A DNA stretch of 64,000 nucleotides from assembly GCF_011075055.1 (NCBI RefSeq), contig NC_058147.1, forward strand, positions 5,270,001 to 5,334,000, given 5' to 3'. The stretch's first letter is position 1. Every line of letters begins with the position of its first letter. The translations under genes were made by a program, and so were the position numbers. This DNA is from Mangifera indica (taxonomy: Eukaryota > Streptophyta > Magnoliopsida > Sapindales > Anacardiaceae). Positions 8,701-61,876 of this stretch are shown here, piece by piece. The notes below the pieces were generated by a model that did not search any database, was not told where the DNA came from, and saw nothing but the letters and a program-made list of their open reading frames with translations.

Positions 8701-9263
8701 ATATAAGCAACGTTGAAGGTGGATGTCTTTTCCGGCCATATAATTGATAAGTAATGCAAACTTACACAGCCCGTATTGTGGATCCAAGTTCGCTAGCTTT
8801 GCATACCCAATATCCTATGTATCCAGAAAAGTAAATTATTATTAGAATTGTTTAGGTGTGAAAAACAGCATGACTTTTCCATTCTTTCAGTTACATTTTT
8901 GCTGAATGGTAACCTTACCTGAGGAATGCAGAGACTTGCAATGGTCAGACCGGCAATGACATCCCCTTTAAATTTAGATAAATTATAATTCCTTGCCCAT
9001 TTAAGAATGGGGAAGATGGCCTGGATGCCAAGGATGAACTTACGCGACCTTGGTTGATTCTTGAAGTGACGCAGCGGATCATCAGCTAAAAATGTTTCTT
9101 TAACAGTTGTTTTGAATTCCTTGAATAGATTTTGTTTAGGGGGAATCCCCACCTTGTGCACATAAGGCTCATTTTGTGAGTATCGTTGAGAGTAACGTTG
9201 AGAAGATAACTCACTTTTAATATCAATCTCTTTTGTTTCAACCTCTCCGGTTGAAGGATCCAT
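5795..9263 (-). CDS. Group-1 (high-affinity) sulfate transporter, second tandem copy, complete
   Basis: Complete SULTR1-type H+/sulfate symporter of 669 aa in 13 coding exons: 9263-8919, 8814-8766, 8680-8473, 8307-8133, 7971-7906, 7808-7695, 7548-7432, 7324-7198, 6985-6699, 6615-6425, 6278-6193, 6107-6031, 5962-5795. Membrane domain about residues 95-510, STAS domain about 535-655. The STAS motif DIDTSGI is intact with Thr595, the position equivalent to the phospho-site Thr587 of Arabidopsis SULTR1;2. The C-terminus LTVADAV...PVEEV is typical of the clade. The first ATG in frame is used. A leader intron (9441-9294) precedes it. The N-terminus holds an in-frame tandem RYSQRYSQ absent from the first copy. 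Plant SULTR1 genes are usually induced by sulfur starvation; the sequence alone does not show this here. Confidence 0.97.
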
Positions 9264-9568
9264 GGAAAATTAGGAGTACTAATTCAATGGCAACTGCAAT
9301 GCAAGAAAAAATCTAGTCATCATCTGAAAACTAAGGCAGCGAATGTACATTTAGTCAAGGAAACAATAATTATTTGACAACAAATCTTATTAACTTAAAA
9401 GCTTTGATAAATAGATATTCCTAATGCTTTCAGAAATTTACCGAAATAACAACGCTGAGGAACTACTGATGGTGAAAGAAAACGAAGCTAACCACAACAA
9501 AGTGATAGGAAGCTTAAGGACCTAATGTGCAGATCCCTCTTGATTTGAATGGAGTCTTACAGACGATG

Positions 9569-18881: not shown

Positions 18882-18902
18882 GAGTCCACTAAAACACTTC
18901 AA
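18882..18902 (+). promoter_or_regulatory. Predicted miR395 target site in the SULTR2 leader
   Basis: A 21-base site ends 14 bases before the ATG. AAACACTTCA pairs perfectly with miR395 positions 2-11, and GAGTCC pairs with the GGACUC 3' end of the miR395b/c/f variant. The remaining differences are position 1, mismatches at 12 and 15, and a wobble at 13. miR395 is the known sulfur-starvation microRNA whose Arabidopsis targets include SULTR2;1 and ATP sulfurylases. The pairing is seen in the sequence; cleavage is inferred. Confidence 0.75.
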
Positions 18903-18916
18903 ACAACATAACTAAT

Positions 18917-21900
18917 ATGGGTTCATTGCCTACTGAAACCTCAGTGGAGGAGCAGCAGCAGCGGCAACCGGACTTGGAGAATTCCAGTCGGGCAGAGAGG
19001 GCATACTGGTTGCTTAATTCACCAGATCCTCCAGGCTTATGGCATGAGCTCATAGGTTCCATAAGAGAAATTTTCTTTCCTGGAAAACTCTCTTCATCAA
19101 ATTCAAAACAACCTTGGTCTAGCCGTTCTTTTCTAGTCTTGCAAAGCCTATTTCCAATTCTTAAATGGGGAAGGATTTACAGCGTCTCAAAGTTTAAACA
19201 TGATTTGATGGCAGGCTTAACTCTTGCTAGCTTAAGCATTCCTCAGGTTGCTAATTTCATTGCCTTCTGTGTTCGTTTCTTGAGCTCAGTAATTATATAA
19301 ATGACACTTTATATCAGTTTCTTATGAATGTTTCAAAAATCTTTTGCAGAGTATTGGTTATGCTAATTTAGCAAAACTGGACCCTCAGTATGGTCTATGT
19401 ACGTAACTTATAAGCAACATATGAATTTAAGAATCATTCTCTGATATGAATTTTTGACTCTTTGCTTTGAGTTGTTTTGTGCATTAGATACAAGTGTTGT
19501 CCCCCCTCTGATTTATGCACTAATGGGGAGTTCAAGAGAGATAGCCATCGGACCAGTAGCTGTGGTTTCAATGCTCCTATCCTCCATGATTCAGCCAGTA
19601 GTAGATGTTGCAGCTGATCCTATCGCCTACAGGAAGCTTGTTTTTACTGTCACTTTCTTTGCCGGTCTCTTCCAATCTATATTTGGGTTGTTTAGGTATG
19701 TCCTTTGTCTTTCTAAATGACTTTCATCTCTAACAAATTACTCTTACTGATACATATATTCTGCAGGTTGGGGTTTCTGGTGGATTTTCTTTCACATGCT
19801 GCCATTGTTGGATTTATGGCTGGTGCAGCCATTGTTATTGGCCTTCAGCAATTGAAGGGATTACTTGGCATCAGTCATTTCACCACCAAAACTGATGTGA
19901 TCTCTGTCCTGGGATCTGTTTTTACATCACTTCACAATTCGGTAAGTTCCATTCATCTCTAAACTTTCTAAAAAAGAAGAAAAAGTTTAAAGGCTTTATC
20001 TTTCTTAATTAAAGCAGAACGAATAATTTACTGGGGACAAATATGTTGAAAATCACTAATGATCAAGTCTTCATTCAGGAATCTTGAGCAGGTCTTTGTT
20101 TGTTAGTCTATTTCTATTATTTGTTGGTTCTCACAACTTGACAATCGCGTCCCTTCCCTGTGCTTTATGGTTGGCAGTGGTATCCTCTGAATTTTGTCTT
20201 CGGTTGTTCATTTCTTGTCTTCCTCCTATTTGCCAGGTTCATTGTAAGTGATTAAATTCTTCAGTTATGTTTTAATTTTCTTCAGCTAAATTACCTTGTC
20301 TTTTAAGCTTTGATAAAACTGTTCTAATTTCAGGGTAGAAGAAATAAAAAGCTCTTCTGGTTTCCAGCAATTGCTCCTCTTCTATCAGTTATATTATCCA
20401 CTTTCATTGTGTATATGACAAGAGCCGATAAGCATGGAGTTCAGATTGTAAAACACATTAAAGGAGGCCTTAATCCGAGTACAGCCCATCAATTGCAATT
20501 CCAAGGACCCCATCTTGGACAAGCTGCCAAAATTGGACTAATTTCTGCTGTTACTGCTCTCACTGTAAGTCTCCATTGTTAAACTTTTTCTTTTCCTAAT
20601 TTTTCCATTTCTTTTTATATGTTTCTTACTACAAACTGAAATATTAATTTCAGGAAGCCGTTGCTGTTGGCCGGTCTTTTGCTTCCATAAAAGGCTACCA
20701 CCTTGATGGGAACAAGGAAATGGTAGCTATGGGCTTCATGAACCTTGCAGGATCTTTAACTTCATGCTATGTGGCAACTGGTGAGCTGCCTTGTTACTTG
20801 ACCCATTTCAAACTAAGAATAAAAAACAATTCATATCATAATTTTGACTTCTATCTGACATATTCTGCAGGATCCTTTTCCCGAACAGCTGTAAATTTCA
20901 GTGCAGGGTGTCAAACTGTGGTGTCAAATATAGTGATGGCCATTACTGTGCTATTTTCACTGATATTGTTTACAAAGCTCTTGTACTACACGCCTATTGC
21001 CATTCTTGCTTCAATCATTCTATCTGCTCTTCCGGGACTAATTGACCTGCCTGAAGCTTACTATATTTTTAAGGTTGACAAACTAGACTTCATTGCTTGC
21101 GTTGGAGCTTTTCTTGGGGTTTTGTTTGCATCAGTTGAAATTGGCCTTCTAGTTGCGGTAATTATAATTTACCTGTTTTAAAATTTACCTATTTTAACTT
21201 TCACTCCAGTAAGTACAAATATTAGGGAGACTTATTTGCTATGTTTAATTGTAAAATACAGGTGAGCATCTCATTTGCAAAGCTCTTGCTGAATGCCATT
21301 AGACCCAGCGTACAACTATTAGGCAGACTTCCAAGGACAGACACCTTTTGCGAGATGAGTCAATTTCCCATGGCCATTGAAACTCCAGGCATTTTGACTA
21401 TCCGCATCAACTCTGCCTTGCTTTGCTTTGCTAATGCAAACTTCATAAGAGAAAGGTAAGTATCTATACATGTGCATAAGCTAGAGAAAGAAGAGCTACA
21501 ATCTTAATTTGACTCCTACCCATTAATGATAATTTTATTTTTATTAACTGTAGGATTACCAAATGGGTAACAGAAGAAGAGGATGACTTACAAGAACCCA
21601 GAAAGAAAACTGTCCAAGTAGTAATTCTAGACATGTCCAGTAAGTTCAATTATCTTGCAGAACATTTTGGCTCCTGATTCAATGATATTCTTACTGATTG
21701 AATTGATTTCTGATACACAGATATGATGAACATCGACACTTCAGGGATTCTTGCACTGGAAGAACTGCATAAAGATTTGGCTTCACATGGCATAGATGTA
21801 AGATCGCTGTGAGCCTGAGCCTCTGACTAATAAAATTTCGAGATTGTAAAACTAAATTATACATGTATATATATATGTATATGCTTGTGGGTTTTGCAGT

Positions 21901-23985: not shown

Positions 23986-26900
23986 TTAGTAGTGGGCATT
24001 AAACAGCCTTAGATGGGGATCAACTGGCAGACCAATGCCCTCAAATATTGGATCATATACAGAATTCTTCATTGGCCTGAAAATATTTACAAATTTTCAG
24101 AATAAACTTAATTGAGGGCAACTTGAAAATAAAATAAAGGTGAGTGTGAGTTCCATGAAACAAACTTTGAGACACTGAAAACATTTGAATGATATGGGTT
24201 ATTGACTTGGTTCCCTTGAGGCCTTTGCAAGTTCGAATCCCCCTGCGTTCAATAAATTAACCAGAAATGAGTCTCTTGAATCTGCCAGAAATTTACTTGA
24301 CTTGATGCAGTGATCAAATTTTTAGATACATCAAATACAGTCAAAACACCTGACAGCCCAACTAGAAAGGCAAGATGAAATAGAAAATTATAATCGTAAT
24401 ACATACATATGCAAAGTTTGAACACCTAGAGCGTTTAATTGATGTTGATGATGACGATTCCCCCAATTCATATCGGGTCGAAGGACGGCCGCGACGCCGT
24501 CGTCCCAGTCCCAGAGGTGGTTGCTGAAAAATATTAACCAACAAAATTTATTAACAATATATAGAACTGAAATGAAATAGATATTAATACCTCATCGTGG
24601 CTGTTCAAAGACAGTTCCAACTGAGAAAATGTTGCTCCAGCAGGGTTGTAGACATTAAGTTCCTTTGACAATCAGATTGTATAATATTAAATTGTGAATT
24701 CAAAATGAAGTTGCTAAAACATATCATTTATTCTTTAGGAGATAATTTTTACTCTTTGATTTGTTGGATTCAAGACTTGATTTTTCTGAGAGCTGCCAGG
24801 TATATGGTACCCCATACTTGGCCTGGCCGGTTGATTAAATAGTCCAGGGAGTTCGAAATTCTGTGACCTGCAAATGGTTGATTGAAATTATGATAATTTT
24901 CCAAATTTAACAGTACTTCATATCTACACTACTGTTTTTATTTAAAGAAAAAAGAAAGTACCCTGGAAGCATGAGAGATTGTGGCACCATGGATTGATTG
25001 CGATCATTTAACTCGGGAATCCTGAATTATACAGACAAAAGAGAATGAACAAGAAGATAACCATATGATGTTTAAAAGGTGGGGAAATCATTTACGTTGG
25101 CAGCAATGGAGTGTTAGGCTGGAGTTGGAAGGAGTTAAAACGCTGTAAATTTGATGCATCAGGTGTTAGTGCAGCTTGATTGAGGTGCTGATGATGAAGA
25201 TATTCTGGGGTCCTATATAAAATCAGAAAATGGCATAATAGAAACTCGATGGCAAACAAACATTCATCCATTTTATTCAGGTGTAATTTCACAAGTAGAA
25301 AATATCATAGAAGATATAGCAGTTACCTCAAACTCAAAGCCATTGAAGGAACGGGCATGATGTTGTTATAACGTTGTTGATCCTGCAGATTAGGTAACAT
25401 TGGCAATTGATTCGATTGATATGGTAAATTTTGGGGCCTGAAATTAAGATAAAAGCAATCAACCGCTTGCACGTCAGTTTCTATATGCTATCCCACTTTC
25501 GGGTTGTGGAATATAAAATGAAACCATATGTCAAGATGAAAATTTAAACCTTATTAGAGGAGAATATTCAGGAATCATAGAGCCTTGCGATTGTGGATTA
25601 AAAGCATTCTCCGGGACTCCGATGAACTGTTGTAGCTGATTAGCTGAATGTTGAGACCTAAAATAACGGTAAAATCAATAAATATTCTTGTAGGCAATAA
25701 TATGGAAAAAAAAATTAGACAATTTAGTGCATGTAAGCATTAATCATCAAGTAAAATGCTTGATATCGGGCACCTTGTTGGCCCAGAGGATGCAGGTAGC
25801 ATGACGTTGGCGTATTGAGAATCAAGAGCATTAGGAGCCGGGAAATGATTTGTTTGGGACCTAAAAAAATTAACAAGCACAGACGTAAAATCGTATACCG
25901 CTTTCATATTAAATCAATATTACTTGTGTAGTTTATACGTAAATGAAATTATGTTAAGTTTGGTAAATAGTAAATCATGTACCTTGATGGAGTTAACAAA
26001 GGCGTAAAAGGAACATTCTGGCAAGAAAGCCAAGAGGGCTGTCTAGAAAGCCAAGGGGGTAGCTGTTGATTTACAGTTCCCATTCCAGTCTGTTCATGGC
26101 AAACAGATTCAACAAGGTCAAAAAACAAATACACAATACAGTATGTATGGTGTCGAGAAGGGTTCATATATGAGTACTCACGGAGCTCTGAGGGAAAGAA
26201 GTTGGATAATATTGAACTGATGGCTGATTCTGTACAAGTTGATCAGCGGATAATTGGCAAGATAGATTGACTGGACTCAGCCCTTTTTGACTGTGGCAAC
26301 AGAATAGAAGATTAGCCGTGAAAATTAATATATTGGTAAATTAAATTAATAAAGACGTACTGTTGAGGCTCATTCTGAAGGCCATTTTCAGGGCCAGTGA
26401 TTAGCTGATTTAGATGTGACAAACTCGTCTCATGTTCTGAATTAAATGATGGGACTACAGCCGTCGTCTGTGGAATCAACTCTGCCTGATTAAGTAAATA
26501 AACAAAAAAAATCAAATATAGTCAGTGATAATCACCTGCTGTACACATTCATTAAGCTTATATGAAGGATGAAGTTCTTTATACCGTCAATGGAGGGTGT
26601 TGGTGTGATTTGGTCGCTGATAATGGGGAAGGGAGGAATGTTGATTTCGTTCGTTGTATATTTGTAGCATTTCCAAGAGAGGGATCAAAGCCTCCGAAAC
26701 CTGAATCTGTTGATCCCACGAAGGTCTGTCTGGTGTCGAAATAATTCAGTAAAGACTCATTACTTCCACTTGATGATCCCAGCTCCACATTCTCCTAGTC
26801 ATGAACAACAAAACGATATAATTACAACTATGATAAAGCAAGTTAAAGAGAATAGTAGAAAATCCGTATTTTAAAATAGAACAATATTATGTTTACATAT

Positions 26901-26987
26901 TTTTTAATATACAAATAGTATACAAACAATGTATCATAACACAATTGAGTATTATTTAATATGATTTTAACATTACCCAATTATATG

Positions 26988-27022
<35 letters not shown>

Positions 27023-28393
27023 TTATATACAAAAAAATATATACATATAATTTTAAAGAATAAAATATCATAGAATTCTTTCATTGCCAAAGGATTCCAA
27101 GGATGAAAACTCCTATCAATGAAAACATGAAGGTTAGGTGTATGTGTTTATACTGGGCAGTTAGCTAGTTTACGTTTAAGATTAAGAAACAAAAAAGAAA
27201 AAGAGTCGTTTGAAACAGCGAGGCAAAATATTTCATTTAACTTTTCCTCTCTATAAACAAATTGCAGAAGAAATATAAAATGTACAATTTTTCTGATTTG
27301 TGTGTGAAATGAGAAACAAGATATAAAAAGAGGGGAAATCTAAGCAGGTTTCATTAGAATTCAAACAGAATAATTTTATCTTGAATATTTTTTTGTTTAA
27401 AAAAAAAAATCATTTTATTAATAAAATACAAATGGGATGTGTTTGACAATAGATATACATTTGAAGCTAGAGTTTGTCTTCTCAAGCACAAACTTCTCCT
27501 ATCTATGCACCCATGACATGGCATACTTTCAACGTAATATATAGTATAATTTATGTTTTCATCATGTATAATCTTATATGGAAATGACAACAAAGTAAAA
27601 ACCAAAATTCAATTACAATTAATTATTACGTAAACTATTGGCTTATATTTTCCATGTTAGTATATTTATTAGTTAATTCTTACCAACGTTGAAACATAGA
27701 GCAGTTGCGGTGGCACCCCTGACAATGGAGTATTAACGGATGAGAAGACCATCGGTGATGGGTTGGGAGCAGCAACGACCGGTTGGCTTGGATTACTATT
27801 TGGACTAATATTTTCATGTCCAGTGGGTGAGACCTGTGCATCGGAGTTCACCTGATCCGGTGAAGGCAGCTCTTGGTTTTGATCTACAGCCGGCGGAGGT
27901 TGGAGTTGCGAGCTTTCCTGGGAAATATACACAAAGATATCACCATATGTAACAAACAGTATATAATGTTGTTTTACGATTTATTATAGTATGAGTAGCA
28001 CTGAAGGGAAAATAAGCAATATGTACTGTTTTTGGATCAGAGGCTTGTGTTGTCTCTGTCAGTGGATCCGCATTGACTGTTGGTGTTAAGTTTGAAGCTT
28101 TCTCAATTGAAGAATCGAATTTTTCAGTTGACATGGGCGGATTGCTTCCTGATGGTGATCCTTGCATCTCCTGCATGACGAACAAATGGATTTCTCAAAA
28201 ATGTTTTTTAATATTCGTTCGTATAAACATGTATGCTAAATTTTAAAGAAGATTAATTTGGTACACTCATTACTTGTGGACTCTGCTCAAAAGGCTGTGA
28301 TTGGGGGTTGTCAAGTAACGGAAGTTCATCATCAAAGTCGAAGTCAAACATCAAAGAAGATCCTAGTTCACCAGTTGTGTCAACCTGATCCAT
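23986..28393 (-). CDS. Unrecognised Q/P/S/N-rich nuclear-type protein with an AT-hook-like motif, 16 exons
   Basis: I do not recognise this family. Sixteen exons join in one frame to encode 634 aa: 28393-28274, 28170-28027, 27917-27684, 26794-26584, 26481-26361, 26290-26182, 26089-25983, 25860-25774, 25657-25550, 25437-25327, 25212-25096, 25021-24962, 24867-24753, 24662-24591, 24523-24426, 24076-23986. All junctions are GT-AG. The N-terminus has an acidic-hydrophobic patch FDFDFDDELPLLD (16-28) resembling an activation domain. The middle is a low-complexity Q/N/P/S-rich region. Residues 580-589 are RRRRGRPSTR, an AT-hook-like core, and the end GIGLPVDPHLRLF looks ordered. Five consecutive exons (8-12) are symmetric phase 2-2 and mostly open with the same short residue pattern. 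A chromatin-bound transcriptional regulator is inference. The exon at 26481 uses the second of two nearby AGs to keep frame. Confidence 0.85.
26990..27020. repeat. (TA)n microsatellite in intron 3 of the 16-exon gene
   Basis: An uninterrupted TA run of about 30 bases lies in the large AT-rich intron between exons 3 and 4. Confidence 0.9.
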
Positions 28394-29017: not shown

Positions 29018-29415
29018 CTGTAAATCTGTAGCAAAATGATTACAAGCAAGCAGGAATCAGACCCTGTACAAATATTATAATAAAAAAGCAGCAACAAAAG
29101 TCAGCACTGAAGCACTAGTGGTCATTTATAAAAATATATACATAGAGGAACAGCATAACTGAATCAAAAGAAATAAATTAAGAACACGGAAAATCATCTC
29201 GTGCACTACATTCTTTCTTCGAGATTTGATTATGCATGAAATTGATGAAAGGTGGAGAGTAAATAAAAGGCTTAGAAAATTACATCTAATGAAGTAGTAG
29301 AGACTAGAGAGTGCTAGGAATTGAGATGTGAGCAAATAGAGAGAAGAAAAATAAAATAAATCAAGATGGTAATGTTGATATTACCTTGAGAGAGGAAATG
29401 AAAGTTAAGAGTATA
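29018..29415 (-). other. Probable non-coding leader exons of the 16-exon gene
   Basis: From the TATA box at 29441-29448, transcription should begin near 29415. A pyrimidine-rich leader ends at a good donor (29385). Further downstream an 8-nt segment (29025-29018) flanked by CAG and GTGAAT, and a 76-nt open segment (28819-28744), could be spliced in. Their frame does not fit the ATG exon at 28393, so I treat them as untranslated or alternative. Confidence 0.35.
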
Positions 29416-34013: not shown

Positions 34014-34129
34014 TGTTAGAATATGCCCTAAAAACTGATCGCTTTAATTGGTTTTAAGGGTTGTATATCTTGCATATACATTATTAATAAAAGAAAAATT
34101 ATGTTATACTTCACATGTTTTCAATGTCA

Positions 34130-34203
<74 letters not shown>

Positions 34204-35695
34204 AGTTGTATATTACATCCATATTAACTACATGCATACGACATGTGAAAAGTCCCGATGAGTTTTAATAAACGTCATCAAATCGTTCCCTACATAGGCA
34301 ATCTGTTTGGGCAATAGTATTGCATAGTGGGTGTGTGCTATATCACCACAGTATATTAATGAATGATATTAGACATGGTGGATATACACATGGGTAAACA
34401 ATAGAACCATTTGATGGTTAGAGAACTGATCAAAGGTTATTTTATTATATTGTTTATCGAACGTGACCGCTGAACGATGATCACATGGGCATTAATATGT
34501 AGTCAATGATACATCGTGAATCATACTAGTGTATAGATCCTTTGACTTGAGATATCACAATTGTGCTTCGTTCCGGAACGTATGGTTCATACGGTGTATA
34601 CCACGAAGCTAATCATGTCTCGTTCAGAAGCCGTTTTGATCATATGTTGCTTGAGCGAGAGGACAAGTGATGATCATACAAGGATCCGTCAGCTCGACTG
34701 CTCCCGAGTTCCCATACGAATATCAAGAAACATAAAAATCTAAGGCACTGGCCAGTGTAGATAAAAGACCACAAGAAAAGAGTTTCGATGTGGCACATTA
34801 TGATGTATTACTTGATATTCGAAAAGATTAAATATAGGATTTTGACATTCCATGAATCCAAGTTTAATCGGGATGTAATGACGGAGGGATTGGACTACAT
34901 GGTAAGTGTGAGTAAGAAAGGTTCATTTGATATTATGTGAAGCTTATATTTCATTGTGATGTAGGGGTCATGGGACATTGCTAAATGATACCACATGATC
35001 AGTGGGAGCTTCATTTTGTAGCGAAAAATGAAGTATATCGGTTAACAACAGTTTTAGGTTATATAATGATATAATGAAACGTATCATCCGATATGGGGCC
35101 CACGACTACGTCACTATGAACCTTGAAGGTCACACCTATATTTTAAGGAAGAAAATGGTGTTATGAAGCTAAAAATATTTATCCATGATTGGCTAGCACT
35201 TTCCGAGGATAAAAATTGTGCTTTTCGAATAAGATTCGGAAAAGGGGCAAAATTGTCATTTTACACCTTTTAAATTGTTTAGAAAGTTAAAATGATTAAT
35301 TTTGGGCACAAATGAATTAACATGTGTCAAATTCTCATTTCTCTTGTTTTTCCACCAATGAGAATTAAACATATGTTTTAACTTGATAATTATCAAGTTT
35401 TAATGCAATAAATATGAGAGAAAATAAAGAAAAATACACATTTTTCTTTTCTTCTTCTTTTTTGCCGGGAAAAGCTTCTCCTTTTTCCATTTTTCTTCCT
35501 TAAATGGTGTAAGTCAAGAGATCACTTATTTTAGTGATTCAAGCTTCCAAACTTCAAATCAAATTACAAGGTACAAGGTAGTTTACATGTTTCTATGTTT
35601 TATTTCTTGAAAAACCATGTAAACTTTTCAATACCATTGTTACATATGATGTGAACATAAATTGAAAATTTTAATTTTGTTGTCAAAATCCTTCA
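34014..35695. mobile_element. Probable solo LTR of an LTR retrotransposon
   Basis: Begins TGTTAGAATATGCCC and ends CCTTCA, flanked on both sides by the 5-bp direct repeat TGAAA (34009-34013 and 35696-35700). It is non-coding. Its end resembles plant LTR R-U5 sequence: an AATAAAGAAAAA stretch followed by a C/T-rich tract and AAGCTTC words. No internal gag-pol lies beside it, so it is a solo LTR of about 1.68 kb carrying an internal (TA)n run. Confidence 0.55.
34132..34198. repeat. (TA)n microsatellite
   Basis: About 66 bases of uninterrupted TA inside the presumed solo LTR. Confidence 0.95.
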
Positions 35696-37950: not shown

Positions 37951-38486
37951 CATTCTCTCAAAAGTAAAAAAATGTCAATAAGATAATCAACATCTTTCTC
38001 ATCTACAATGATGATAGGCGTGTTACTGTTAATATTTTTTGGTTTCATACTTATCTGAATATTATTCCACTTCTAATTGGTATGAATATGTTTACTCATC
38101 AATCGAATTAATCCCTCCAATGTCATGTTTGTAGGGATTTTAAACTTTTTCTTTTTTTTGCATCTAGCTAATATATTCCATTTTATTATCATTTTTTAAT
38201 CCTTTTTTTCATCATACTGAATTAAAACATAATTCATCATTTATATCAATGTTATGATGGAAATATTTATATAAAAATGATTCAAAATTAAATTTATAAA
38301 TATAATATTAAATTTTTATCATTTTAATGCTCGATACAATGCAAGATATGTTTAATTACTTTCATTGAATAATCATGTAATTTCTTCTGGACAGACAAAA
38401 TTGTATTAATTCCTGGATTACATTATTTATAGTGAAATTACATGAGAAATAACACAATCATTCTCAGTGCAATAAGATGGATGTTT
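37951..38486. other. Spacer before the MADS-box gene 3' end
   Basis: AT-rich; it includes the likely 3'UTR of the minus-strand MADS gene. Nothing else is recognised. Confidence 0.4.
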
Positions 38487-41323
<2,837 letters not shown>

Positions 41324-46913: not shown

Positions 46914-47461
46914 TCACATTATTGAACAAGCATTAGGGTTTTCATCGCTGAACATGGTGATGTAAGTGTCGTTCACCGTGGTCTCGGTGATGGTGGCGGT
47001 GGCTGGAACGGCCCTCACGTGATTAGCAGGAGCTTTCTTGTCATAAGCCTGAGAAATATAAGGATTTGCCACCAGAGTGTAGGGGACGTACGGCCATATC
47101 TCCACCTTCTTCTTAGTCGACTTAGCAGCTGCCAACACTTTCTTCGGGTCAACGTATCCGGTTACAGTGGCCTTCTGTTGTTTCAAGTCCACCTCCACGG
47201 ATTTGGCTCCTGCAATTCAGAAAATCATTGTTACTTTCAAACAAACTATGAAGGATAACATGAAGGATATAGAAATATAAAGGAAAATATGTATATATAT
47301 CTACCTTTTACAGAAGAGAGTACACGCTTGACCTTCCGCACACAGCCTTCACAATCCATCCTTATTTTAAGTGCTACTGTCTGCGTTCGCTTCATCTTCT
47401 TCTTCCTTTTTACACTGCTTAGTAAATCAGAAAGATATTCCAAAGTACCCTGAACTCCCAT
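46914..47461 (-). CDS. Heavy-metal-associated isoprenylated plant protein (HIPP)
   Basis: 150 aa in two exons, 47461-47305 and 47209-46914. One HMA domain spans about residues 26-92 with the metal-binding core MDCEGC (Cys37, Cys40), followed by the family's WPYVPY and AYDKKAP blocks. The protein ends FSDENPNACSIM; CSIM is a CaaX box predicting farnesylation at Cys147. Length, intron position inside the HMA domain and C-terminus match the HIPP20/21/22 group. These proteins bind heavy metals such as cadmium or zinc and sit at membranes or in the nucleus; the metal here cannot be told from sequence. The ATG is the first in frame and lies within a TATA-led transcript. Confidence 0.96.
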
Positions 47462-50679: not shown

Positions 50680-53600
50680 TTAATCGGATGGTTGGAACAA
50701 ACATATTAACAGTATCAATAAACTCATTTGAAGGAACAGAGAATGAAGTTGCAGGATTGACAATGCTGAGGACTTTGACGAACCCCTTTTGCCAGTGGCA
50801 GGTGAAACAGTGCTGGCATTACTGGTGCTCTGTTGCTCATTGGTTGGCAACGGGGTTGGAGATCCACCATCAGGCGGTGGCACAAGATGTACATGTGTCC
50901 TGTCACTCACATCTTCACCTGTTTAAACAAAAAAGGTATCAAATTAAGACCCACATACAATGAACACAACTGGGTATCAAAGATTTAAATGGAAAAATTA
51001 AAAATAATTTTAATTTTTAAACCACAAACACAAAGAGATGGTTGACTCAGAGAAACTGTTGGAAACAATACCATCATTGTAAGAACAGCCACATAAATTT
51101 AAGCCTAACTCTCATTTTCAAACCTTACCAATTACTGCACATCCACCATCTGTTCATTACAGAGTTTGACAAAAGAGCTACATATTATTGCACAGCAAAG
51201 TTAACAATTTAATCACTCAGCATAATCAAAAATAGATTAAATGCTTAGATAAAAAAGAGCTACCGAGTATTGCACAGCCAAGTTAACTCTCTTCTTCTAA
51301 AGGATTTCTTTTATACAGTATTTTAAAAAATACTAGCAGATTTTTCTTTCTCAAAGAACAAACAGCAAAGACAACTAGATTGATATAAAAAAATAACTTA
51401 TTTTAACATCAACCTTGTTTAACTTCTCTGTGTACTAAGCATTAACTGTAAACAATAGATACATTTCATTTATGAAAGCAAGAATGCAACCTGATTAAAA
51501 TGAACTTTACATAGCCACCTCAACAACAGAGATACCCGATAAAAATACAAAGCAATGATAAGACTGATAATAATTTGGAAGGAAAATTTCACCCAAGGTC
51601 TTACAACGACCATAACAATTTGGACCTGTTCTTTGTTATATTAATTCTTAATGTGAACTTTTGACTATTTTTAAAATATTAAGTAAACGGAGACCTCCTA
51701 CAACTAAATGAATGCACCACATAAATTTTGCTAAATTCTTACTTCAAGACCCTTAGATTTTTATTTTTCACAGTTAGGTGTCAAAGATTGTAAAGCTATT
51801 TATTTAAAATAATGTCTACCAACTCTTAGGACTGTATTCATTTAAGAAAAAAACCTGAAGCACTTACAATTGGAAAGTGACCAACCCAACTTAAAATTTT
51901 CCCTATCAAAGACCATGCGATGGCCCATCATGAAGTTTTCTGCAGGACATGGATTAAATCTATTGTCATAAAACGCAGAGAGAATAAAGAGAAGATAGAT
52001 AAGTCAAAGGGAAAAATTAAAGACTGCAACAGTGTACTCACGTCCTATAATGCCAAAGTCTCCATCTGCAGGCATCACAGTTAAACAGAATACGGTAAAT
52101 CCCTGCACAACACATCCAGACAACTAATTATCCAACATTAATTTTTTCCATCAACTTAAAAAGGAACAATCAAGAGAAAACATGCAAAAGGAAAACTTGG
52201 AAGGTATCTATATCCATATATGTAGAAAAAATGGATGATACCAACCAAATATACTTAAAATTGTACACAACAATCTTGAAGATTGTACAAGTCAACTTCT
52301 CACCAATGCAAAACACTTGTTGTGAACTAGAAAATGAAATCTAAACACTACATGTTTATAATAATTCAATCTGCCTCTGTTTTAGACCATATTTCTCTGA
52401 AAATTTTAATTGGACCATAAGTTTAGACTCAAATGTCGAAAAGTTAAGCCAGCAGGATCAGCTACCTGATTTTCAGGAAAGATATATTTGTGATTATGGA
52501 CTACAAAGCTTTGGTTTGCAGTAAATATGAGCCTCATGTTGGGAATGCTACGCAGCTCCTTTGAACTGTTTCACATAAGACAGCTGACAATGAGTTCTAA
52601 AGATATAAGCAATAAGGCTTTCCTAAACTCTTCGCATTTAAAATCCAACCTGGCATTGTAGCAGTTCTTCCAGGAATTTCCTTGAAGATAAATTTTTTTA
52701 GCAGTCACAAGTTTGTCAAACTGTAATAAAGACATAATCATCTTTGGGCCATAACATTGTAACACAATTTATAAAGTAAAATCAGGACAATTGAAGCACC
52801 TTTGAAATAACATTATCATATACGTTAGTTGGAAGAAATGTGAACGATGAACCACTATCAACCAATGCTTTGAATCCAGATTGCTGAAGACAAGAACTTC
52901 CAACACAGTAAGACTCCACCTCAACAAAATAGGTGTCACTGAAACAATTAAGAGAAAAATTACAAGATCAGTCACCAAATATATGAAAGCAACCAAAGGA
53001 CTCCAAACAGCTAGCAGAAAAGCTATAGTCTTTTACTTCTACCTCCCTAGACAGGGCAAAAGACATATGTAGGAGTAAAATATACATAGATGGCATACTA
53101 TTTTTCTCCTATGGGCAAGAATGGAGTGGACTGTTGAGAGGCAGGCCCTTGATCTCCAAAGAAAATTCTTCCTGAATCATTCTCATCAAAACAAATTGAG
53201 AAAGAATTCGGAATAAATCCTGCTTTAGCAAGCAAAGTTGGTACCGAAATGTCTCCAAGTCCCAACCCCATTAGTCCATCCGGAGCTGCTCCATCCAAAT
53301 AACTGCCAGTTTGCTTCCTACCACAGCTGATGGAATGAAACATGTAGCAGAAAGAATCATATGTCTAAGCACATACATACATGGTTGATGAACATTAAAG
53401 GAAAACCCACATAAACACACCCTATAATTACTGATGCTTGCACTGAACTTTTGGATGCATAATTGCTAACTGATGCCAAGTGTAGTACATCTTCAACCAG
53501 ATATCCAGAACTTGTGGTATCTTGTGAAGCATACTGAGCAATGTAAGGGCAGGGGTCCTTCAAGCTTTTGCAGTTTGAGTGGGGCTTGCATAACTGATCA

Positions 53601-54705
53601 CCGCACGATAGGTTTTTGCTGCTGCTGGAAATTGTCGGATCAAACTCACTCAGATCTCTTTCCTGCACAATGGATGCCCCAAATACAAGGGAGCACCTGC
53701 CAATCAATCATTGGAATTAAAATGCTAAATCTGTTATCAATTCCTAGCCAAAGCACTGTTTAATGCTTCGAGTCCTTTCAACATGTTTCAGCGATACCAA
53801 ATTTTAAAATGAAAGGGAAATGCATTTCTGAGAGCGGCAGAGTACTAAGGGAATGCCCATTAACATTTACCTTCAGATATTCTCCTGATTTAACGATGAA
53901 CGCCACTAGTAGCACTTAAAGAATCAATTGATATCTTTCACAAGGATAACAGTTCATTCCATTTCAATTTCAATTCATATATAATTTATACGAAGTAAAA
54001 TCTGACATCAACCATGACTAGGAAAATGAAACCGTTACAAAGAAGAATAAACAGTTTAAAACAAAAAGAAAAAATGGCCTACCAAAGAAGTATAGTTACT
54101 GGCAGACAACGGAGCGCATTCTATACATTGACATGGGACCCATAAAATATTACTTCCAGCATCCAATGCAACCAGAAACGAAACGTTTGGTGTCCCTATG
54201 TCAATCCACGTGTAATGCAACCTGAATTATAAAATCAGACGCACAAGAAACCTAAAATTAATTAATAGGGCAATCCATCGATTACATGTTTTTATTTATT
54301 AATGGTTGACAAAAAAACAAAAACAAAGAAATCTTTCGTTTTCTCAGGAACCAAACAAAGAGTAACGAGTTTCACTGACCAATAAAACTGATTTCCGAAG
54401 TACAGAGTATGGCTTCCTTGAGAGGGAAACAGCAATTGATACTGCGACTTGTTACTACTTTGTAAATCCACTCTCATTTTCTGCCGTTTCAAGTCGTTAA
54501 GCAAAAGCAAGTCCATAAACTCCACACTTTCCTTCTTCGGCCACATACCAGCAACCGACGCGTTACCACCTCTCGAAATCCATCTCTCTTTCGCTTCGTC
54601 GGAAAATCGGTGAATCAGCTTCGAAGAAAACGTGACAGCAGCCGATCCATCGAACAACAAGTAACTTAACAAAGAGACCAGCAACATAACCAGACGATTC
54701 GCCAT
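50680..54705 (-). CDS. Aspartic protease-like protein (A1 family), secreted, probably GPI-anchored
   Basis: 538 aa in ten exons: 54705-54380, 54221-54083, 53662-53421, 53326-53099, 52938-52800, 52720-52650, 52565-52466, 52102-52042, 51939-51868, 50918-50680. It is closest to Arabidopsis At5g10080 (aspartic proteinase-like protein 1). A signal peptide fills about residues 1-23. The first active-site triad is D129-A-G rather than the usual DTG; the second is D339-S-G in LVDSGSSFTFLP. The 72-nt exon 9 restores the family block NFMMGHRMVFDREN and GWS. Cysteines WVPCQCIECAPL fit plant A1 proteases. After an S/P/G-rich stretch the C-terminus is a hydrophobic tail (LFLQMSLLILLICLF), typical of a GPI signal. 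Activity is uncertain because of the DAG motif. Confidence 0.93.
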
Positions 54706-59659: not shown

Positions 59660-61090
59660 GTGGCAGAAGAACTATTTTCTGCCCGCAAAATAACCAAAAG
59701 TATCGGCAAAACGTCTAAGATTAAAAAGTCCACCGAGAGATGACTGGAAAGACAATCAATCCCCACCTATAAATGGGTAATTTAAACAACAGAAAATTTA
59801 GTTATTGATATTAAGAGAGAGTAATTTTATACAGAAATAAACGGGGAATATTAAGACTGAAATCGAAGCCAAGCTAGAATCTTAACAGCATTAGCTAATG
59901 TCTATCTGTCTCTGTCTCTTTGTCTTTTTACTTGTCATCCTCGTATGATTTTCTTGTCTCAAAGCCCAAATCAAGATGTCAACTTTTTTTTCTCCATTGC
60001 AATCCAGTAAGTTCTTACCATTTTTTTTTCTTTTCTTTTATTATTTCGTATATGTGAATGTGATATATCTGTCATCTTCGTCTATTTTAGTGTTTCTTCT
60101 CAATCTGTTCATCATCTTCTCTCTTCTTCTGTCAATCATCTCCAGTTTAAAGAGTTGAAACACTTTGATTTATCGAATTGAAGTGTTCTAAGTTCTAACT
60201 ATTCATTGTTTGTCACAAGAAACCCTAATTCAAGGAATTCTTTACTCATTCATATATTCTTTTGTGGATGAAGAAAACTTGTGTTCAAATCTTGACTATA
60301 TTTTATTCAATTATTCGATCATATTTATTCCTTAGAATTATGTCATTCATCATTAGAATTCCACCATGTTTGATTCAAATTCCTGTACCGATATTATATA
60401 CCAAAAAAAAAAAAAATTAGGCTAGAAATTTTTATCTCATCATTCATCCATGATGAAATTGTTGGGTTCGTCTAGAGAATAAAGAAATAGAACCTATTTT
60501 TTTTATGTTGAGCTGGAGATCCCTGGCATCCACGTTTGCATGCAGAGATGTCTGCTTCAACCCCCGTTGCCAACCTTTTTGGACGCGCATATGCCTTCTT
60601 TTTGTTCTCTTCTTCTTCCCCAATAATTAATTTCTCATTTTCATTTTCAAGTAATTAATTTCCTTTCCTTTCCTTTCTTTCTTTTTAAATAATACCTACT
60701 ACATGTATGATCCATTAACGTTTTGCGTTCGAGACCCTTTTTGTGGACCTTGGATGAATAAAGTACAATGAATAGAGTCGAGCTTTACACATGGTCATTG
60801 TTGATTCTACAGCAAAACTAGCACAAAAATTACCTAATAGAAACGCCGCCCCCACAGCTTGCAGGCTGATTGCTGTATTGCAATTAGATTCAGGTAATCT
60901 ATGGTCTAATTTTTTTTGTATATTTGTGTATTACAGGTAAGTCGCTTACGAACGAGATTTCGAATATCTACAAGCCACATACATTCCCAATGTTGACGTC
61001 ACAGATATTAGCTGTCTCTGCCACAATTTTCTCTAGATAGCTAGATTGGTCAAAGACTTGGAAAACCCACAATTTGTTCTTTCGATCACG
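59660..61090. other. Upstream region of the FAF-like gene
   Basis: The promoter and leader of the plus-strand gene are expected here. Short C/T-rich tracts (about 59900-60130) may be leader sequence. I could not fix a TATA box or transcription start. No other gene is seen. Confidence 0.35.
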
Positions 61091-61876
61091 ATGCAGTCCC
61101 CAAAATCATCAGATATAGAACTTGGTCACCATCACAATTCTAGAGTTATGAGATCTAACCTGGTGTCACATCCACTATCACCATCGTTTTCTTCTCAGAT
61201 GGGTGATTACATTGGTACGGAGAGCTGCCTCGACTCGAAGAATTATAAACATTTGCTTACGGAGAATAGAGAAGACGAGAATAATGGAGCACGGGTTCAG
61301 AATTATGTTCGTGGTAAGAGAGACCAACGATGTTCAATGAAGCAGAAGAAGAAGAAAGAGTTTCCTCCACCAATATCACTGCTTGCACGTACAGAGAACC
61401 AAACTTCGCGTATGCCGTTTGTGTTGAAGAGATACTACACAAATGATGGCCGTTTGATCCTTCGGGAAGAAAGGTTGAGACATTATGAGTATTTCATCAA
61501 GGCCTACAGATCCAATGGTCATCTCACATTGCAGCTTGTTCATCTAGATGACGATGTCTTGGCCCCTCCCTTTTCCGATGAAAATGAAAATGAAGTCGAC
61601 GAACCATATTGCAATGCGGAAGAAGAACAAGTGGAAGAAGCGACTGATGATTTTGTCGAAAATGGTGAGAAGAAGATCGTACGTAAAAATACGGAAGAAG
61701 CGAGGGCAAAGTATGAATCTAAAATAGCCAAGTCGTCAGTTGAGAATGGGAGTGTTCCAAGAGCGATGGGTGAGAATGGCGGCGGCGGCAAGTGTTTGAA
61801 GTACAACAGCGTGGGAATAAACTCACCCTGTTTTCTAGGGATGCCAGTACAAGCAATCAAGCCGGTTCACACTTGA
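61091..61876 (+). CDS. FAF-like protein (FANTASTIC FOUR domain), single exon
   Basis: 261 aa from the first in-frame ATG at 61091; the frame is open a little further upstream but has no ATG there. The FAF domain covers about residues 90-152: EFPPPISLLAR, then VLKRYYTNDGRLILREE and LTLQLVHLDDD. A lysine-rich stretch precedes it and a long acidic E/D-rich region follows (about 163-200), as in this family. The RYY/GRLILREE form is that of Protein FAF-like (Arabidopsis At5g22090) rather than FAF1-4. FAF proteins are plant-specific; FAF1-4 influence shoot meristem size through the WUSCHEL pathway. The role of FAF-like proteins is less clear, so function here is inferred only from family. Confidence 0.92.
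   Translation: MQSPKSSDIELGHHHNSRVMRSNLVSHPLSPSFSSQMGDYIGTESCLDSKNYKHLLTENREDENNGARVQNYVRGKRDQRCSMKQKKKKEFPPPISLLARTENQTSRMPFVLKRYYTNDGRLILREERLRHYEYFIKAYRSNGHLTLQLVHLDDDVLAPPFSDENENEVDEPYCNAEEEQVEEATDDFVENGEKKIVRKNTEEARAKYESKIAKSSVENGSVPRAMGENGGGGKCLKYNSVGINSPCFLGMPVQAIKPVHT

What the first reader, a model, noticed from the sequence alone, without database searches (positions are those of the whole stretch)
23986..28393. Unrecognised 16-exon gene with acidic N-terminus, Q/P-rich exon series and AT-hook-like C-terminus
Sixteen exons splice into one uninterrupted 634-codon frame, which is very unlikely by chance, yet no known domain is evident. The layout (acidic-hydrophobic patch, disordered Q/N/P/S-rich middle, RRRRGRPSTR, then an ordered-looking tail with GLPVDPHLR) suggests a DNA-associated transcriptional regulator. 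It sits between two genes that are direct neighbours in Arabidopsis (SULTR2;2 and AGL66).
Basis: partly seen in the sequence, partly recalled or inferred. Interest (0 to 1): 0.75.

Follow-up and report, generated by a model that had tools for sequence, protein, structure and literature searches.

The report
Undescribed disordered plant protein gene
This is a real but unstudied mango gene for a long, mostly unfolded, probably nuclear protein, one of a family of flowering-plant proteins that share a short, almost unchanging tail and have no assigned function.

Summary
The gene is real. A Mangifera indica database protein (P0001, LOC123229664) contains all 667 residues unchanged, and a Pistacia protein is 63% identical.

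It belongs to an unnamed eudicot family without a Pfam domain. The shared feature is a C-terminal motif, N-x2-YDP-x5-GLP-x-DPHLRLF, invariant in the 12 proteins of each alignment. Part of the Q/N/P-rich middle is a ~35-residue repeat; four consecutive mango exons carry one unit each, and relatives have 0 to 8. AlphaFold2 finds almost no structure (mean pLDDT 41). The AT-hook-like RGRP occurs in 2 of 13 family proteins, so it is not the family's defining feature.

Best guess (0.5): a nuclear, disordered transcriptional adaptor with an acidic-aromatic start, a basic patch and a docking tail; location and function are inferred. The mango database model fuses this gene to the MADS gene next door, across ~10 kb holding a solo LTR; I read that as read-through or over-merging, unproven.

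The parts
28274..28393 (-). Exon 1 (40 codons): start codon and acidic-aromatic patch SSLMFDFDFDDELPLL
   Evidence: Pistacia P0002 starts at the matching methionine
28027..28170 (-). Exon 2
27684..27917 (-). Exon 3
26585..26794 (-). Exon 4, after an 889-nt intron
26361..26485 (-). Exon 5
26182..26290 (-). Exon 6
25983..26089 (-). Exon 7
25774..25860 (-). Exon 8: repeat unit 1, phase 2 at both ends
25550..25657 (-). Exon 9: repeat unit 2, phase 2 at both ends
25327..25437 (-). Exon 10: repeat unit 3, phase 2 at both ends
25096..25212 (-). Exon 11: repeat unit 4, phase 2 at both ends
24962..25021 (-). Exon 12: 60 nt, phase 2 at both ends, not counted as a repeat unit
24753..24867 (-). Exon 13
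24591..24662 (-). Exon 14, with LELSL
24407..24523 (-).
24166..24242 (-).
   Evidence: from the mango model P0001
23986..24076 (-). Exon 17: conserved tail KNSVYDPIFEGIGLPVDPHLRLF and stop
38360..38412 (-). Linker exon by which database model P0001 joins the MADS gene to exon 1 (uncertain)
   Evidence: coordinates read by hand; tblastn piece
38357..41323 (-). Upstream MADS-box gene ('AGL66-like'; the closeness to AGL66 itself is recalled, not tested)
   Evidence: tblastn of P0001, SRF-TF domain
34014..35695 (.). Solo LTR, 1682 bp, TG...CA ends, TGAAA duplication, between the two genes

Best explanation
A genuine 17-exon mango gene encodes a 667-residue, almost wholly disordered protein of an undescribed eudicot family. 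Proposed mechanism: the protein enters the nucleus by its basic patch (exon 15), uses the acidic-aromatic N-terminus as an activation-type contact for the transcription machinery, uses the exon-encoded Q/N/P repeats as a flexible multivalent spacer whose length can change by gain or skipping of symmetric exons, and docks with its invariant C-terminal motif on one conserved folded partner. That makes it a transcriptional adaptor without a DNA-binding domain of its own. Shown here: the open gene and its splice sites, the family, the motif, the repeats and the predicted lack of structure. Inferred: nuclear location, activation role, docking partner.
For: Gene and splicing; Pistacia protein 63% identical over the full length; tail invariant in 12 of 12 proteins in both alignments and the best-kept exon between mango and Pistacia, 26 of 30 residues; net charge -10 in the first 40 residues and +4 in residues 601-640; 684 of 725 residues below pLDDT 50 in the Pistacia model; no Pfam match to the protein; exons 8-12 symmetric in phase and repeat units varying from 0 to 8 among relatives.
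Against: No localisation, expression or interaction data. By eye the acidic-aromatic start is clear in 6 of 13 family proteins (mango, Pistacia, Carya, Carpinus, Corylus, P0007), looser in 3 (Reevesia, Rubroshorea, Nyssa) and not evident in 4 (Tarenaya, Hibiscus, two Prunus), so it is not a fixed feature. The repeats are absent from Prunus and Nyssa. Low pLDDT from 12 sequences is weak proof of disorder. Only 3 of 36 exon pairs stand out in the pairwise shuffle test.
Confidence: 0.5

Rival explanations
1. The gene is not separate: mango makes one MADS-domain protein of 1,027 residues whose C-terminal two thirds is this sequence, so the disordered part is the tail of a MADS transcription factor.
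For: The database model P0001 is such a fusion, with a SRF-TF domain (E 8e-26) and a K-box match just under its cut-off; both genes lie on the same strand, and the linker exon is present in the window.
Against: The Pistacia protein and, apart from P0001, all the other 13 database proteins found lack a MADS domain (for 11 of them, precomputed domains for P0013 and P0014). The join must remove the MADS gene's own stop and cross about 10 kb with a solo LTR. An exact rebuilding of the MADS half on this assembly failed after residue 295, so P0001 is not fully borne out here.
Confidence: 0.12
2. One reading: a DNA-associated regulator that binds A+T-rich DNA through the AT-hook-like RRRRGRPSTR.
For: RGRP in mango and Pistacia at the same place; 7 of 1000 shuffles of the mango protein contain RGRP.
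Against: RGRP is missing from the other 11 of 13 family proteins; no DNA-binding domain found. It may be a lineage-specific addition.
Confidence: 0.13
3. A Q/N/P-rich scaffold or condensate protein outside transcription, for example in RNA handling in the cytoplasm.
For: Composition S 13.2, P 12.1, Q 9.6, N 8.5 percent and the repeats would fit such a scaffold equally well.
Against: The acidic-aromatic start and the basic patch together fit a nuclear role better, though neither proves it.
Confidence: 0.2

Closest known systems
Uncharacterised proteins of the same family: Mangifera LOC123229664 (P0001), Pistacia Pint_08292 (P0002), Carya LOC122311528 (P0003), Corylus LOC132170565 (P0006), Tarenaya LOC104800166 (P0008) and others
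   Same: Conserved tail in all 14 proteins found; repeats in most, acidic start in many
   Different: None has an assigned function; number of repeats and presence of RGRP and LELSL differ; P0001 is fused to a MADS part, P0012 to a P450, P0014 to a beta-glucosidase
AT-hook proteins (AHL family; definition recalled)
   Same: RGRP core in the mango and Pistacia proteins
   Different: No PPC domain or other Pfam match; RGRP absent from 11 of 13 relatives
MADS-box factors of the MIKC* kind (AGL66; group recalled)
   Same: Neighbouring gene; a YDP tripeptide in the mango neighbour's C-terminus aligns with the tail (1 of 1000 shuffles as good)
   Different: This gene has no MADS or K-box region; against the family profile the likeness holds for the neighbour (1 of 500) but not for its paralogue on C19 (50 of 500)

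Membership tests
Undescribed eudicot family (this report) | C-terminal N-x2-YDP-x5-GLP-x-DPHLRLF | tested here: met
   Exon 17; invariant in the alignments of 12
Undescribed eudicot family (this report) | Exon-encoded ~35-residue repeats (not universal) | tested here: met
   Exons 8-11; 0 of 300 shuffled proteins hit; three of 36 exon pairs significant
AT-hook / AHL proteins | RGRP core in a basic stretch | tested here: met
   Mango and Pistacia only, 2 of 13
AT-hook / AHL proteins | PPC domain (recalled as the defining domain of AHL) | tested here: not met
   No Pfam match at E up to 1
MADS-box factors | MADS domain in the protein encoded at 23986-28393 | tested here: not met
   No Pfam match; a MADS domain occurs only in the fused model P0001
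EAR-motif repressors | Conserved LxLxL motif | tested here: inconclusive
   LELSL in exon 14 in mango and Pistacia only; 461 of 1000 shuffles of the mango protein contain an LxLxL
Transcriptional co-regulators (functional class) | Nuclear location and effect on transcription | not testable with these tools
   Needs cell experiments

The most novel reading that the evidence does not exclude
In mango the MADS gene and this gene are also transcribed and spliced as one message across a solo LTR, making a new MADS factor with a long disordered tail and a docking motif alongside the separate proteins.
Probability: 0.12. Interest if true: 0.65.

Novelty: new variant of a known kind. Interest (0 to 1): 0.4.

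Why it matters
It points to a plant protein family that has no Pfam match and that my paper searches did not find described. Its tail is almost frozen in the rosids and the one asterid found while the rest drifts, the usual sign of a binding site for one conserved partner, so a bait experiment could find the partner directly. The one-repeat-per-exon series is a neat case of a disordered region changing length by whole symmetric exons. It also warns that a mango MADS-box gene model may be a merger of two genes.

Tried and rejected
Rejected: a chance open frame. Rejected as family features: AT-hook and EAR motif. Considered and dropped: a shared origin of the tail with a YDP stretch of the MADS neighbour (1 of 1000 shuffles as good; with the family profile 1 of 500 for the neighbour but 50 of 500 for its C19 paralogue). 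Led nowhere: PDB search with the protein (no hit at E up to 1) and with the tail profile (best E 0.43, an 11-residue match to a phosphodiesterase); papers holding the tail letters (0) or five locus names (0); listings for mango MADS genes, Arabidopsis locus names, MADS read-through or fusion (1 listed, unrelated by title), synteny (3 listed, none holding AGL66) and disordered rosid families (4 listed); in PMC12373214 only a passage was seen and it holds no YDP. No fold comparison was made because the model has no confident part. Carya's leader residues DLQVN recur in frame at 29026 in the mango leader, a weak hint of a shared 5' exon, not pursued.

Rows dropped: P0012 (Prunus armeniaca, merged with a P450, near copy of P0010 in its front part) from the motif counts, from the tail profile and from alignment A2. 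P0014 was cut to residues 416-618 because its front is a beta-glucosidase; it is in neither alignment A1 nor A2. P0007 was kept although its label looks wrong. Alignment A3 leaves out P0007, P0011, P0012 and one of the two near-identical Betulaceae tails.

Full report
Observation. Sixteen exons on the minus strand between 28393 and 23986, all with GT-AG introns, join to 635 codons and a stop. In the 17-exon version the two other frames hold 26 and 47 stops, the composition-based chance of an open frame of 667 codons is about 3e-15, and 0 of 20000 shuffled sequences were open. Exons are 45% and introns 27% G+C.

Correction of the model. The first, P0001, is 'uncharacterized protein LOC123229664' of Mangifera indica. 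Its residues 361-1027 are reproduced exactly by 17 exons in the window, 667 codons.

The merged database model. P0001 begins with a MADS domain and a K-box match slightly under Pfam's cut-off (28.7 against 30 bits), which map to a gene at 41323-38357 on the same strand. The model joins this to exon 1 through a 53-nt linker exon (38412-38360, read by hand). The join must splice out a stop that follows the MADS gene's last residues and cross about 10 kb that hold a 1682-bp solo LTR with TG...CA ends and a TGAAA duplication (39 near-full copies elsewhere were scored out of 6918 candidates, a lower bound; some lie about 7.9 kb apart, as two LTRs of one element would). My exact rebuilding of the MADS half failed after residue 295, so I cannot confirm that part of P0001 on this assembly. 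The Pistacia protein starts at the matching methionine and has no MADS part. Read-through or over-merging is my reading; only transcripts can decide.

Family. A search with the Pistacia C-terminus listed 11 proteins and one with the Prunus C-terminus listed 5, two of them new: 14 different proteins in all. They come from Mangifera and Pistacia (Anacardiaceae), Carya, Carpinus and Corylus (Fagales, recalled), Reevesia, Shorea, Rubroshorea and Hibiscus (Malvales, recalled), Prunus (Rosales, recalled), Tarenaya (Brassicales) and the asterid Nyssa (Cornales). The search works by shared words and length limits, so absence of a species says little; no Arabidopsis protein came up. In A1 (P0001-P0012) 15 columns are invariant, 14 of them in the tail; in A2 (without P0012, with P0013) all 14 invariant columns are in the tail. 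Nyssa P0014 carries the motif too. At curated cut-offs only the MADS part of P0001 and the P450 part of P0012 match Pfam among the 12 proteins scanned.

Repeats. Exons 8-12 begin and end in phase 2, so each can be gained or lost without a frameshift. Pairwise shuffling on exons 5-13 gave 3 of 36 pairs at 6 or fewer of 300 shuffles (5-9, 8-10, 10-11), against about 0.8 expected: modest evidence within mango alone. A profile made only from mango exons 8-11 found units (E below 0.01 for one sequence) in Pistacia 4, Carya 7, Carpinus 6, Corylus 6, P0007 4, Reevesia 3, Rubroshorea 2, Tarenaya 1, and none in Hibiscus, Nyssa and three Prunus. A second profile built from all those units, hence partly circular, counts at E below 0.001 Carya 8, Corylus 7, Carpinus 6, P0007 6, Reevesia 4, mango 4, Pistacia 4, Rubroshorea 2, Hibiscus 2, Tarenaya 1, and 0 in Nyssa and Prunus; 0 of 300 shuffled proteins had a hit. 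Its consensus is RPQQSSHQQLNQVPMTPNAFDPQCHNSMLPESSMP.

Structure. AlphaFold2 on the Pistacia protein with 12 sequences gave mean pLDDT 41, 684 of 725 residues below 50, and two tail blocks at 63 with one four-residue helix. The tail is thus a short motif, not a domain.

AT-hook and EAR. RGRP occurs in mango and Pistacia, 2 of 13 proteins, and in 7 of 1000 shuffles of the mango protein. LELSL occurs in the same two; any LxLxL occurs in 5 of 13 (also two Prunus, inside the tail, and Hibiscus) and in 461 of 1000 shuffles. By eye the acidic-aromatic start is clear in 6 of 13, looser in 3 and not evident in 4; a basic patch at the place of exon 15 is visible in most but not in Prunus and Nyssa.

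Copies in the genome. Besides this gene, a search with the Pistacia protein at E up to 1 found the tail three times on contig C2 (2795356-2795445, E 2.7e-5; 2805511-2805600, E 0.017; 2857309-2857392, E 0.058). The first lies among Q/N/P/S-rich open stretches; the other two have altered tail residues (SLPVGPHLQ, KGLLVDPHLR). I did not splice them. The MADS gene has a paralogue at C19:8921156-8921885, and no match to this gene on C19 was listed. A further search with the Prunus protein did not complete.

Neighbours. One exon of the plus-strand gene at 18.9-21.2 kb is a sulfate permease (PF00916); two other open frames taken for SULTR N-termini (8793-9269, 18893-19300) gave no Pfam match, and the subfamily names SULTR1 and SULTR2 are recalled. 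AGL66 is At1g77980 (passage seen in PMC2258202); At1g77990 is a SULTR gene (passages seen in PMC12567104; that it is SULTR2;2 is recalled). I did not read the Arabidopsis genome and did not test that the MADS neighbour is the AGL66 orthologue.

Mechanism. Inference only: acidic-aromatic start as activation contact, basic patch for nuclear entry, exon-coded disordered repeats as a multivalent spacer, invariant tail as docking site. I give this 0.5. It is a new family of a known general kind, interesting mainly for the frozen tail and the exon-repeat series.

Noticed in passing
window 34014-35695: Solo LTR with TG...CA ends and a 5-bp TGAAA duplication between the MADS gene and this gene; 39 near-full copies scored elsewhere in the genome.
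   Followed up: partly
window about 26880-27055 (intron 3): A+T-rich multicopy element matched on both strands at dozens of places in the genome, 59 matches listed including the gene itself; possibly a palindromic MITE.
   Followed up: no
G000 contig C2: 2795356-2795445, 2805511-2805600, 2857309-2857392 (L017-L019): Three further copies of the tail motif on one strand within about 62 kb; the first looks like a gene of the shorter Prunus type, the other two have altered tails.
   Followed up: partly
protein P0007 (labelled Shorea laevis): Far closer to Corylus (58% with gaps) than to Rubroshorea (29%); possible contamination or mislabelling. Its gaps against Corylus remove whole repeat units.
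   Followed up: partly
proteins P0012 (Prunus armeniaca), P0014 (Nyssa sinensis) and P0002 (Pistacia): Likely gene-model errors: P0012 runs into a P450, P0014 starts as a beta-glucosidase, and P0002 carries about 40 residues that match translated intron 2 of mango, where mango has a stop.
   Followed up: partly
window 46914-47216 (-), 53357-53707 (-), 61037-61876 (+): Open frames with a heavy-metal-associated domain match slightly under the cut-off, a TAXi_N aspartic-protease-like domain and a FAF (Fantastic Four) domain.
   Followed up: no
window 29448 and 29026 (-): A TATAAATA stretch and a DLQVN-coding stretch upstream of exon 1, possible promoter and 5' leader of this gene's own transcript.
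   Followed up: no
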